Shown here piece after piece: positions 25,543 to 29,374 of a stretch of DNA of 64,000 bases (within the stretch, counting starts at the first letter, position 1; each line of letters begins with the position of its first letter). Origin of the DNA: Thioploca sp. GTDB taxonomy: Bacteria > Pseudomonadota > Gammaproteobacteria > Beggiatoales > Beggiatoaceae. Below the pieces are notes generated by a model. That model searched no databases. It saw only the letters and a program-made list of their open reading frames with translations, and was not told where the DNA came from. The stretch covers positions 1 to 64,000 of the forward strand of contig JAAUSR010000001.1 of NCBI GenBank assembly GCA_012032555.1, written 5' to 3'. Both the position numbers and the translations under genes were made by a program.

Positions 25543-25675
25543 ATACTCATAGCTGAATTCGGATTTCAAGGTGCGACTGGATGGTAATAGCGAATACACG
25601 GTGCGATAACACACCTCCATTCACTCAAATGCGAATGAAGAGCTAAAATATTAGCCTCCCAATCAATAAATTATG

Positions 25676-25754
25676 TAGGTTGGGTCGAGCACAGCGAAAC
25701 CCAACTTATTTTTCAATGAGTGATAGTAAGTCGGGTTAGCAAAGTGTAACCCGA
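25676..25754. repeat. Two adjacent REP-like hairpins
   Basis: GTTGGGT (25679-25685) pairs with ACCCAAC (25699-25705), and TCGGGTTA (25731-25738) pairs with TAACCCGA (25747-25754). The sequence GTAGGTTGGGT...GAAACCCAAC is a dispersed palindromic repeat known from many gammaproteobacterial and sulfur-bacterial genomes. The gap lies between converging genes and the hairpins may end transcription in both directions. Confidence 0.7.
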
Positions 25755-25847
25755 TATTTATTCATTAGACAATTAATTAAAACCGGTGAGTTTGAAAACC
25801 AACTCACCCGTTGCTTAGTTATATTATGGATTAGACCGACTTGGCTG

Positions 25848-28226
25848 TTATTGATGAGCTGCTAATAGCTGATCTAAACATACCCCGGCTAACTCATATT
25901 CATGACAAAGTGTAATGGCTTTGGTCCGGAGCTCATTTAATTCTGTGTCAGATAGTTTACTATCACCAACGACTACGGTATCAATTTGATCACAATGGAG
26001 CATGCATTGACCACTCGCATCAATATCTTCTAAGGTGCAGTGTTGAACCCCGGGTTTCTGGAGGTTAGTATTGACATAAGGATAATCAGTTGATGAATAA
26101 AGCGCACCATAGTTGGGTAACATAGCTTTACTGGGAATGAGCTCACTATTCAGTTGAGTAATTTCCTGAAATTGATTGCCTTGCATTTGGGCGCACCAGA
26201 GATTCATGCCTAAATTGTTCTCTTCCGAGGCAGTATCCCATTGGATAACCAGTTGATTTCCTAAAATTGATGTGGTTAACTTATTTAAAGTTACTCCCAA
26301 ATATTCTTGAACATCACCACAAGTTCCGCCGGCCTGACACATTTCTGCTGTTGCTTCATTAACCTGACCCCAGTTAAATTTTTTAGCACCAGCATTCTTG
26401 GCTAACATTTTACATTCCTCAAAAGTATATGAACCCGATGAAGCATCACAAACAGTACTACCATCCGCTCCAGTGTAGCTACAACAATTATATAATTCTG
26501 CTTCATCTGGTATACCATTACCATTCTCATCAACAGAAGTACCGTTGCGGATATCTAAGAGATCATCAATGCCATTTTTATTTAAGTCCGGTTTAATTCC
26601 CGCTAATTGGTAAAAAATCCTCGATTCCAATGGCCCATCAACGAATTGTCCTTGATTAGGATCCCAATAATGGGCATTAGGATCAATGACAGTAGCAATG
26701 ATATAGACATAGGTTGACGGAAACAAACTCAAAGCAGTACCTTTTTCACAATATTCCATTTCCCCATACTGGGTATCCGGTATGGGTGGTGATTTAAACC
26801 CTCTTTGGCAGTTATCTCCGGGATTATAAGTAATATCAACATGCCTTCTATCAGTCAGTTTAGCTATATTAATTGAAGTTTCTTCCTCAACTTCTAATGC
26901 CTCTTGAATATTAAATTCCGAAATAACTTTAACGGGTAAACCACTTAAGTCGACTAATCTAGCATCTCGTACCATTGAATTTATATCGATCATGCGTGGT
27001 ACAAAACGTACTACTAAATTCTGTAAAATAAGCGGGGTCGGCATAGCGTTAAAAAAGCTCAAATTAAAAATACCACTAGCCATATCAAGCGTGCCAGTAT
27101 CATATCCAAATAACCGTGGTGAAAGTGCCAACTCATTATTGCCAGCACCGAGTAATTTTACCTCACGCACGATAATTGCGTCCGGTTGAGTAAAACTGGT
27201 TCCGATATGAAATTTAACGCCCGGTGGTGCAATGCCATTCGCTCCGTTTGCCCAACTTTTTGCCACATTAAACTCTAACTGAAATACGTTAAAAAGATTA
27301 CCTTGAAAAGTTTCGGTAGCACCCGTATTAGTGACAGTAGGATTGGTCCATGGACTTAAAGAACCATTGTAAAACCAGCTGATGGTAAGTGAATTAGCTT
27401 GACTGAGGATTTTTATTCTTAAAGCATAGGCATCTACGCTATTTGGATTAATAAAATCCCAATTATGCACAGTTTTAGTATTCAAACCGACGTTGTGACC
27501 TAATATTTCGTAAGCAGTATCACTAAAATGTCGATTGAAACCAGCACGTTGTTCTCCGGTCAACCCGGTTGATCCGGTTGCCATAATGTGATTATTTTGT
27601 GGATCTTCTCCCATTTGTGGTGCAGAATTACCATGCGATAGTCCATAATTATGCGCCGCTTCATGACTAACTGTTCCAGTAATCGCATTAGCCCAACGGG
27701 CTAAAGTTGAATTAGCACCGGCTAAAGCTCCTCCGGCTCCACCGTAAGCATCACCGAAACTTTGAGCCCAAACTCGGGCATAATCTTGGGGATCATTGTC
27801 ACCAATATCTACATTTTGTGCTTCCCCAAACAAAGCTCCTCCACCTAAACTTTCTGAGTCTGAACCAATAGCTACTATTTGCCAACGGGTTTCGCTTGGA
27901 CTGGGTGTAGAAGTAGTGTTTTTCACCTCTACATTAAATTCACAGTAATCATCTATTACGCCTTCAAAAATTTCTTGACGCAGTTGTGCGGTACTTCCAA
28001 TTCCAGCATCGAGATCAGAAACATTAAACGGTTCAGCCGGTGAGGTATCTCCAGAACCATACTCTGGAAAGCTCATATCAGCTACAGTTGGAAAATAAAG
28101 ATAAAGCGCATTGTCTTTAGGACTTGAAATTGCACTAGAAGGACAAATCTGTGCTGTAGATAGGTTAATAAATGAAATAATCGTAAAAATAAAAACTATA
28201 TTAATAAAACGAGATAATATTAACAT
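25848..28226 (-). CDS. Secreted metzincin-like zinc metalloprotease
   Basis: A 792-aa exported protein, signal peptide ~1-25. The zinc motif HEAAHNYGLSH (HExxHxxGxxH) and, about 20 residues later, a Met-turn candidate NHIMATG place it with the metzincins. A beta-rich middle region (~260-520) follows, then two calcium-binding loops of the dockerin/thrombospondin-3 type (DLNKNGIDDLLDI and DENGNGIPDEAE, ~570-600), a cysteine-rich patch, and a C-terminal beta domain (~660-750; LVIQWDTASEENNLGMNLW). That last domain is also found in the divergent neighbour, a TIMP-like protein. Substrate unknown; likely secreted to the cell surface or medium. Confidence 0.8.
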   Translation of the reverse strand: MLILSRFINIVFIFTIISFINLSTAQICPSSAISSPKDNALYLYFPTVADMSFPEYGSGDTSPAEPFNVSDLDAGIGSTAQLRQEIFEGVIDDYCEFNVEVKNTTSTPSPSETRWQIVAIGSDSESLGGGALFGEAQNVDIGDNDPQDYARVWAQSFGDAYGGAGGALAGANSTLARWANAITGTVSHEAAHNYGLSHGNSAPQMGEDPQNNHIMATGSTGLTGEQRAGFNRHFSDTAYEILGHNVGLNTKTVHNWDFINPNSVDAYALRIKILSQANSLTISWFYNGSLSPWTNPTVTNTGATETFQGNLFNVFQLEFNVAKSWANGANGIAPPGVKFHIGTSFTQPDAIIVREVKLLGAGNNELALSPRLFGYDTGTLDMASGIFNLSFFNAMPTPLILQNLVVRFVPRMIDINSMVRDARLVDLSGLPVKVISEFNIQEALEVEEETSINIAKLTDRRHVDITYNPGDNCQRGFKSPPIPDTQYGEMEYCEKGTALSLFPSTYVYIIATVIDPNAHYWDPNQGQFVDGPLESRIFYQLAGIKPDLNKNGIDDLLDIRNGTSVDENGNGIPDEAELYNCCSYTGADGSTVCDASSGSYTFEECKMLAKNAGAKKFNWGQVNEATAEMCQAGGTCGDVQEYLGVTLNKLTTSILGNQLVIQWDTASEENNLGMNLWCAQMQGNQFQEITQLNSELIPSKAMLPNYGALYSSTDYPYVNTNLQKPGVQHCTLEDIDASGQCMLHCDQIDTVVVGDSKLSDTELNELRTKAITLCHEYELAGVCLDQLLAAHQ

Positions 28227-28342
28227 GTAAATATCTCCTTACCTTGATATTAGAAATACAAAATTTGGGACGCTATTAAGAATTACAAGTCCGTTTTTCA
28301 TAGATTATATTTACTCTATATAGATAAAATTGGAGAGATATT

Positions 28343-29170
28343 ATGATTACGTCTAAATATCGTCGTTCAACTTATAATAAGATTATGTTATTATTGATTT
28401 CCATCAGTATTAGTGATTTATTTTTTAATAATGTCTTTGCTTGTGATTGTGAGTTACCTAGAACACCGCTTGATGGCTTAGCAAAAGCGACTACTGTTTT
28501 TTCAGGGAAGGTTCTGGAAGTGAAACGTGCTTTGCTAACCGATAAGGAATTAGAAGTGATGGAAGTGACATTTCAGGTTCAAACGGTCTGGAAAGGCACA
28601 ATGCATCCCCTACAAACAATTGTTACTGCTGCTTCAGAAGCAACCTGTGGATTCAATTTTGAGAAGGATCATGAATACTTGGTTTATACCTTTACTTCTG
28701 GAGGTCAACTTAACACTTCCCTATGTAATCGAACTACTGCTCTTTCTTCAGCAAGCCAAGATTTGCAAGAACTGGGTGAAGGTCATCCACCAATAGCGGA
28801 AAACCCAGTTAAATTTAAGACAATGGCACTTCAAAATCGTGTTTTTATAGAATGGGAAACACCACCTGATTCTAATCGGCTTGGTTTTTATTTGTGGCGT
28901 GCTCTCCCTCAGGGCAAGGAATGCACTCAAGATGTAGCAAAATATACTGATATTATCATGCTTAGCGATCCTACTGGAAAATTACTATTATTTGAAAGTA
29001 AAGATACCCCAATTCTAGGCACCAAATACTTTTATGTAGATTATGATGTCATTTTGGAAAAGAGTTATTGCTATATGTTACAAGAAATTGATTATAAATA
29101 TAATTCTACTTACTATTTAGATAGTATAAGTTTAGTTACTATAGAAAATAATAGTTGTAGTATAAAGTAA
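28343..29170 (+). CDS. Secreted TIMP-like (NTR-domain) protein, candidate metalloprotease inhibitor
   Basis: A 275-aa exported protein. After a signal peptide the mature chain would begin CDCELPRTP, that is Cys-x-Cys at the very N-terminus as in tissue inhibitors of metalloproteinases. The following ~115 residues fit the TIMP/netrin-like domain: TTVFSGKVLEVKRA, FQVQTVWKGTMH, TCGFNFEKDHEYLVYTF, SLCNRTTALSSASQDLQEL. In TIMPs the free N-terminal Cys chelates the metzincin zinc. Residues ~165-270 form a beta domain (VFIEWETPPDSNRLGFYLW) shared with the C-terminus of the protease encoded 116 bp away in the opposite direction. GGAGAG precedes the ATG. Whether it inhibits the protease is inference. 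Confidence 0.75.
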   Translation: MITSKYRRSTYNKIMLLLISISISDLFFNNVFACDCELPRTPLDGLAKATTVFSGKVLEVKRALLTDKELEVMEVTFQVQTVWKGTMHPLQTIVTAASEATCGFNFEKDHEYLVYTFTSGGQLNTSLCNRTTALSSASQDLQELGEGHPPIAENPVKFKTMALQNRVFIEWETPPDSNRLGFYLWRALPQGKECTQDVAKYTDIIMLSDPTGKLLLFESKDTPILGTKYFYVDYDVILEKSYCYMLQEIDYKYNSTYYLDSISLVTIENNSCSIK

Positions 29171-29374
29171 ATTAAAAAAACAAGTATCCTCTCCCATTCT
29201 TTCTTTACCGAGAAGCAAGAGCGAGAAAACCCTTCGCATTTCTGACAACCCCAAAATCCTTAAACCAATAGCTTAATCTCTTTCGTGCTAAACTTGTTTT
29301 TAGCAAGAAATTTTAATGCAGTGACCCTCCATTTGAGAGAGGGAGATTTAATCGCTTAATTTAATGGCAGGGTG

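What the first reader, a model, noticed from the sequence alone, without database searches (positions are those of the whole stretch)
25848..29170. Divergent gene pair: secreted metzincin-like protease and secreted TIMP-like inhibitor
Seen: one gene encodes an exported protein with HExxHxxGxxH and a Met-turn candidate; 116 bp away, in the opposite direction, the other encodes an exported NTR-type protein whose predicted mature N-terminus is Cys-x-Cys. Known: TIMPs block metzincins by chelating zinc with the N-terminal Cys. Inference: a bacterial protease-inhibitor pair sharing one promoter region, possibly protecting the filament from its own secreted protease or controlling matrix turnover.
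Basis: partly seen in the sequence, partly recalled or inferred. Interest (0 to 1): 0.76.

Follow-up and report, generated by a model that had tools for sequence, protein, structure and literature searches.

The report
Bacterial TIMP-like inhibitor beside ADAM-like protease
A bacterium carries, back to back, a gene for an exported zinc protease resembling animal ADAM proteases and a gene for an exported protein resembling the animal inhibitors (TIMPs) that block such enzymes; the likeness is real, but that one blocks the other is unproven, and the pairing was not found in any other genome examined.

Summary
25848-28226(-) encodes an exported protein with HEAAHNYGLSH and a Met-turn HIMATG; 28343-29170(+), 116 bp away and divergent, encodes an exported protein with predicted mature N-terminus Cys-Asp-Cys. 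The second is a real TIMP-domain protein: Pfam TIMP passes its cut-off (31.3 against 23.1 bits), a sequence search starts at TIMP-3 Cys1, four TIMP cysteines are kept, and an AlphaFold model (pLDDT 88) matches N-TIMP-3 (Z 14.4). The signal peptide fits SPase I (VFA|C) and fails the lipobox pattern. The protease resembles adamalysin/ADAM enzymes by profile, has no visible propeptide and passes no Pfam cut-off. The genome has one TIMP domain and two HExxHxxGxxH proteins, so chance adjacency is about 0.1%. Both proteins end in the same type of C-terminal module, and both lie in a segment missing from the sister species. Against a fixed pair: none of 26 TIMP-like loci elsewhere has a metzincin motif nearby, and the one full protease homologue has no TIMP neighbour. 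A metzincin/TIMP-like pair is already known in Listeria (PMC8235301), where the protease cleaves the TIMP-like lipoprotein. Inhibition is plausible (about 45%), not shown. A shared promoter is unsupported.

The parts
25848..28226 (-). exported ADAM/adamalysin-like metzincin, 792 aa, modular
   Evidence: ORF; profile match to adamalysins/ADAM8 E 2.3e-4; 49% homologue G770
28152..28226 (-). signal peptide of the protease (STA|Q), no visible propeptide before the first conserved strand NALYLYFPT
   Evidence: read; alignment with the G770 homologue
27462..28151 (-). catalytic domain (about residues 26-255)
27633..27665 (-). zinc-binding motif HEAAHNYGLSH
27573..27590 (-). Met-turn HIMATG, followed by RHFSDT (compare ADAM FSDCS)
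26592..27461 (-). conserved accessory region (residues about 256-545), no Pfam match, conserved in the G770 homologue
26502..26591 (-). DLNKNGIDD...DENGNGIPDE calcium-binding-type repeats (inference from the motif)
   Evidence: read; conserved in G770
25947..26501 (-). Cys-rich segment plus C-terminal module, about 65% identical to the ends of other proteins of this genome
28227..28342 (.). 116-bp divergent intergenic region, 26% GC, no promoter signal above chance
28343..29170 (+). exported TIMP-domain protein, 275 aa
28343..28441 (+). signal peptide ending NNVFA|C; fits the SPase I AXA rule, fails lipobox pattern PS00013
28442..28777 (+). TIMP N-domain (NTR/OB fold), Cys 1, 3, 69 and 95 of the mature chain
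28790..29167 (+). C-terminal module of the same type as in the protease

Best explanation
The two genes most likely encode a secreted, ADAM-like zinc protease and a secreted TIMP that inhibits it. Shown: both are exported by sequence; the protease has a metzincin zinc site and Met-turn and no visible propeptide; the partner has a TIMP N-domain whose Cys1 is predicted to become the first residue after SPase I cleavage and is not a predicted lipidation site. Inferred: Cys1's amino group and carbonyl chelate the catalytic zinc, and Asp2 enters the S1' pocket, as residue 2 does in animal TIMPs. Because the protease appears to be made without a propeptide, the inhibitor would keep it silent in the periplasm or on the cell that makes it; the C-terminal module shared by both would send them to the same place. 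They were probably gained or moved together as one segment.
For: TIMP membership: Pfam TIMP above cut-off; phmmer to TIMP-3 beginning at Cys1; family profile against TIMP-2 4e-7; Foldseek and VIA best hits are TIMPs, Z 14.4 and 2.3 A over 110 residues to N-TIMP-3. Cys1 directly follows an A(S)-x-A-type cleavage site in the window and in relatives from Bacillota, Acidobacteriota and other Pseudomonadota; none of 18 has Leu at -3. Protease: profile against ADAM8, acutolysin and ADAMTS-5, conserved Met-turn and FSD. Pairing: the only TIMP domain lies next to one of only two HExxHxxGxxH proteins in the genome, chance about 8e-4. Both carry the same C-terminal module type (BLASTP 5e-10). The protease is absent from all, and the TIMP-like gene from all but one, of the other 41 genomes of the family, and both are absent from the congener; the segment holding them falls between two blocks that are 1.2 Mb apart in the congener. 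TIMP-3 is the animal TIMP that inhibits ADAM/ADAMTS enzymes (established knowledge).
Against: The pairing is seen only here: 0 of 26 other TIMP-like loci have a metzincin motif nearby, and the G770 protease homologue has no TIMP-type neighbour. The shared module occurs in roughly 30 other proteins of the genome, so it marks a class of surface proteins rather than this pair. Residue 2 is Asp, not Ser or Thr as in animal TIMPs; most bacterial relatives have Ser. The third N-domain disulphide (Cys13-Cys124 type) is missing. No complex could be modelled. In the only studied bacterial case the TIMP-like protein is cleaved by the metzincin and not shown to inhibit it (PMC8235301).
Confidence: 0.45

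Rival explanations
1. The TIMP-like protein is a general-purpose bacterial TIMP/NTR protein that inhibits foreign or other metalloproteases, or binds another partner. Its place beside the metzincin is coincidental or reflects only a cluster of lineage-specific surface proteins.
For: TIMP-like proteins with the same CxC N-terminus are scattered over several phyla without any metzincin neighbour. The neighbouring breakpoint and repeats suggest a variable region in which unrelated accessory genes collect.
Against: The genome has just one TIMP domain and two metzincin motifs, so adjacency has odds of about 1 in 1,200. Both share the phyletic pattern and the module type.
Confidence: 0.33
2. As in Listeria Mtz-Tim, the protease cleaves and releases or activates the TIMP-like protein, which then acts on the envelope; the two form an effector pair rather than an enzyme and its inhibitor.
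For: The only experimentally studied bacterial metzincin/TIMP-like pair I found works this way (PMC8235301). The C-terminal module could be an anchor from which cleavage releases the TIMP domain.
Against: The Listeria protein is a lipoprotein with structure-only resemblance to TIMP and an N-terminal stretch removed by cleavage. Here Cys1 is predicted at the mature N-terminus and TIMP similarity is detectable by sequence.
Confidence: 0.17
3. The Cys is lipidated, so the protein is an outer- or inner-membrane lipoprotein in which zinc chelation by Cys1 is blocked.
For: A Cys directly follows a small residue at the end of a signal peptide. Among the 18 sequences tested, 4 relatives fit the loose PS00013 pattern.
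Against: The window sequence SDLFFNNVFAC fails PS00013 (Asn at -4, Asp at -9). None of 18 family members has Leu at -3, and position -2 is mostly aromatic or polar.
Confidence: 0.05

Closest known systems
Listeria monocytogenes Mtz-Tim (LMRG_00713/LMRG_00714; PMC8235301)
   Same: Adjacent genes for a secreted metzincin and a TIMP-like exported protein in a bacterium; the same paper reports similar pairs in other Firmicutes with SPase I signals.
   Different: There the genes are in tandem, of phage origin, and Tim is an LTAC lipoprotein with structural but no sequence similarity to TIMP that Mtz cleaves. Here the genes are divergent, no phage context was seen, Cys1 is predicted free, TIMP similarity is at sequence level, and both proteins have C-terminal modules.
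Animal TIMPs (Pfam PF00965, MEROPS I35), especially N-TIMP-3
   Same: N-domain fold, Cys1-x-Cys3 at the predicted mature N-terminus, equivalents of the Cys1-Cys72 and Cys3-Cys101 disulphides (TIMP-2 numbering), SEATCG-type loop.
   Different: No TIMP C-terminal domain; third N-domain disulphide missing; residue 2 is Asp; a bacterial C-terminal module instead.
Adamalysin/reprolysin (M12B, ADAM/ADAMTS) metzincins; also weak M66
   Same: HExxHNxGxxH, I-M-A Met-turn and FSD motif after it.
   Different: Only profile-level similarity (2.3e-4), no Pfam family passes its cut-off, no visible propeptide, unknown 300-residue accessory region.
[quoted passage not shown] also cited in PMC8235301)
   Same: A bacterial metzincin with a partner inhibitor that uses its N-terminus at the active-site zinc.
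   Different: AprI has an unrelated fold (beta-barrel, N-terminal Ser) and is in the protease operon.

Membership tests
TIMP (Pfam PF00965 / N-TIMP) | sequence profile above the curated cut-off | tested here: met
   31.3 bits against 23.1 on the NTR domain, 30.3 on residues 1-151; the full-length scan did not list it
TIMP (Pfam PF00965 / N-TIMP) | N-TIMP OB/NTR fold | tested here: met
   model pLDDT 88; Z 14.4, 2.3 A over 110 residues to 3cki_B; Foldseek best 18 hits all TIMPs
TIMP (Pfam PF00965 / N-TIMP) | Cys1 at the mature N-terminus (free amino group) | tested here: inconclusive
   predicted: VFA|C fits SPase I and fails lipobox PS00013; no SignalP-type program or protein data available
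TIMP (Pfam PF00965 / N-TIMP) | N-domain cysteines 1, 3, about 70 and about 99 (two disulphides) | tested here: met
   Cys 1, 3, 69, 95 aligned to TIMP-2 Cys 1, 3, 72, 101
TIMP (Pfam PF00965 / N-TIMP) | third N-domain disulphide and C-terminal TIMP domain | tested here: not met
   no further cysteines in the NTR domain and a different C-terminal module; not required of all members, as many invertebrate TIMPs lack the C-terminal domain (established knowledge)
TIMP (Pfam PF00965 / N-TIMP) | inhibits a metzincin | not testable with these tools
   needs protein
Metzincin | HExxHxxGxxH | tested here: met
   residues 188-198
Metzincin | Met-turn | tested here: met
   HIMATG; column is Met in the window and the G849 relative, Leu in G770
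M12B adamalysin/ADAM | Pfam reprolysin profile above cut-off | tested here: not met
   best Reprolysin_5 12.7 bits against 27; PDB profile search ADAM8 2.3e-4, so adamalysin-like, not filed as M12B
M66 peptidase | Pfam M66 above cut-off | tested here: not met
   19.1 bits against 20.6, zinc helix only
Conserved metzincin-TIMP pair (Listeria Mtz-Tim type) | pair conserved across genomes | tested here: not met
   0 of 26 other TIMP-like loci have HExxHxxGxx[HD] nearby; G770 protease has no TIMP-type neighbour

The most novel reading that the evidence does not exclude
A true bacterial TIMP that blocks its neighbouring ADAM-like metzincin by N-terminal Cys chelation of zinc, in a Gram-negative bacterium. 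The animal-type TIMP/ADAM mechanism would then exist in bacteria as a protease-inhibitor pair with a common targeting module.
Probability: 0.38. Interest if true: 0.75.

Novelty: new variant of a known kind. Interest (0 to 1): 0.55.

Why it matters
TIMPs are usually treated as an animal family. The Listeria authors (PMC8235301, 2021) wrote that they found no published record of bacterial proteins structurally similar to TIMPs. Here, and in relatives from at least three phyla, the TIMP N-domain with Cys1-x-Cys3 right behind the signal peptide is detectable by sequence. If the inhibitor reading holds, TIMP-type zinc chelation is far older or more mobile than assumed, and this pair is a simple two-protein system in which to test it. 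If it does not hold, bacterial TIMP domains have another role that must still explain a strictly placed N-terminal Cys.

Tried and rejected
Structure of the protease from its own sequence alone: pLDDT 33, discarded. The secreted 245-residue ORF upstream of the G770 protease homologue looks NTR-like by eye but gave shuffle p 0.37 and hhalign probability 1.4%, so it is not counted as a TIMP partner. Phage and plasmid collections: no TIMP match in phages, one Nonomuraea chromosome-sized record in plasmids, no protease match in plasmids. Viral contigs: no protease relative; the TIMP alignment was too divergent to scan. The first motif pattern scan was mis-spaced and void, repeated correctly. The divergent gap has no promoter-like excess (2 found, 2.5 expected) and only weak palindromes.

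Full report
OBSERVATION. Two divergent ORFs lie at the stated coordinates with 116 bp between them. The minus-strand gene (25848-28226, 792 aa) begins with a signal peptide (...INLSTA|QICPSS) and carries HEAAHNYGLSH at residues 188-198 and HIMATG at 213-218. The plus-strand gene (28343-29170, 275 aa) has a signal peptide ending ...FFNNVFA followed by CDCELP. Both starts have Shine-Dalgarno sequences.

THE TIMP-LIKE PROTEIN. With the domain given alone, Pfam TIMP (PF00965) scores 31.3 bits against a cut-off of 23.1 (30.3 bits on residues 1-151). The scan of the whole protein did not list it. A single-sequence search of PDB sequences gives TIMP-3 at E 0.002 with the alignment starting exactly at Cys1, and a profile of relatives gives TIMP-2 at 4e-7. 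The AlphaFold model (11 sequences, pLDDT 88, pTM 0.83) finds TIMPs as its best 18 Foldseek hits and aligns to N-TIMP-3 with Z 14.4, 2.3 A over 110 residues, model residue 5 (the first Cys) on TIMP Cys1. Its domain cysteines are 1, 3, 69 and 95 of the mature chain, which align with TIMP-2 Cys 1, 3, 72 and 101, the partners of two of the three N-domain disulphides (the pairing is established knowledge of TIMPs; it was not measured in the model). The third disulphide and the animal C-terminal domain are missing, and residue 2 is Asp where animal TIMPs have Ser or Thr.

IS CYS1 FREE? The sequence SDLFFNNVFA|C obeys the SPase I (-3,-1) rule and fails the lipobox pattern PS00013. In 18 family members none has Leu at -3, position -2 is mostly Tyr, Phe, Gln or similar, and position -1 is Ala in 17. 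The Cys-x-Cys follows the predicted cleavage site directly in relatives from Bacillota, Acidobacteriota and other Pseudomonadota. This argues that the exact N-terminal placement matters, which a structural disulphide alone would not require. It remains a prediction from rules, without SignalP or protein data.

THE PROTEASE. No Pfam family passes its cut-off; M66 comes nearest (19.1 against 20.6 bits), followed by M11 and Reprolysin. A profile of the catalytic region with four relatives has adamalysins and ADAMs as its best PDB hits (ADAM8 2.3e-4, acutolysin 6e-4, ADAMTS-5 0.002), the ADAM8 alignment running from the zinc helix to the FSD motif behind the Met-turn. The Met-turn column is Met here and in G849 and Leu in G770. 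The first conserved strand starts about 13 residues after the predicted cleavage site, here and in G770, so there is no room for a sizeable propeptide. Behind the catalytic domain follow a conserved region without Pfam match, DxNxNGxxD-type repeats, a Cys-rich segment and a C-terminal module.

THE SHARED MODULE. The C-terminal modules of the two proteins are related (BLASTP 5e-10 for this one comparison). About 30 further places of the genome encode it, among them leucine-rich-repeat proteins. The G770 protease has a different C-terminus and most of the Bacillota TIMP-like proteins end in a hydrophobic segment with a basic tail instead. So both window proteins carry a local module, which suggests a common destination but is not specific to the pair.

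ADJACENCY. The genome (5.55 Mb) has one TIMP-domain match and two HExxHxxGxxH sites, the other in an astacin/matrixin-like protein. With about 4,800 genes (estimate) the chance of adjacency is about 8e-4. It is a post-hoc figure. Among 42 genomes of the family only one other has a TIMP-like gene and none other has the protease. In the one other species of the genus the two flanking blocks are present at 87% identity but 1.2 Mb apart (on a circle), and 25546-29370, with the two genes and short dispersed repeats on either side, is missing apart from a relative of the protease's C-terminal module elsewhere. The pair is therefore a lineage-specific segment at a rearrangement breakpoint.

TEST OF THE PAIR ELSEWHERE. 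TIMP-like genes occur in about 2% of the genomes sampled in class and phylum (6 of 369, 9 of 398). In 26 TIMP-like loci (326 kb in all; a few are short or end near the gene) no ORF of 100 aa or more holds HExxHxxGxx[HD]. The only full homologue of the protease found (G770, 49% identity) has no TIMP-type neighbour. The pairing is thus not conserved in what could be searched, and co-function rests on this genome alone.

KNOWN PRECEDENT. Boichis et al. 2021 (PMC8235301) describe mtz-tim of Listeria: a secreted metzincin and a lipoprotein structurally, not by sequence, like TIMP, of phage origin, with similar pairs in other Firmicutes. There the metzincin cleaves the TIMP-like protein, and the pair sensitises cells to lysis. 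The present pair is a new variant: divergent genes, a Gram-negative host (inferred from the gene content), a sequence-level TIMP domain, a predicted free Cys1 and added C-terminal modules.

MECHANISM. Most likely (about 45%) the TIMP domain inhibits the neighbouring protease in the TIMP manner and protects the producing cell from an enzyme made without a propeptide. The alternatives are an inhibitor or binding protein with another target (33%), a Listeria-like cleavage pair (17%), or a lipoprotein (5%). A shared promoter is not supported.

Noticed in passing
window 25627-25721 and 29284-29328: Short dispersed repeats flank the two genes; the left one has about 20 further copies and the right one about 10 in the genome. 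In the congener the flanking blocks are 1.2 Mb apart.
   Followed up: partly
G770, locus L067 9951-10685 (-): A secreted 245-residue ORF directly upstream of the full-length protease homologue looks NTR/OB-like by eye but lacks the TIMP cysteines; sequence tests were not significant. A structure prediction would settle it.
   Followed up: partly
genome contig C119 52328-53406 (L002, L011) and about 30 other places: The C-terminal module of both window proteins recurs in leucine-rich-repeat proteins and others of this genome; no Pfam family matches it.
   Followed up: partly
genome contigs C37, C184, C44 (L017-L020): Proteins with many HYDGNQW-type repeats share the Cys-rich segment plus module of the protease at about 60-65% identity, which suggests domain swapping between surface proteins.
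   Followed up: no
L031-L043: Bacillota TIMP-like proteins with the same ACSC mature N-terminus mostly end in a C-terminal hydrophobic segment with a basic tail, so the TIMP domain would sit on the outer face of the membrane; no metzincin lies nearby.
   Followed up: partly
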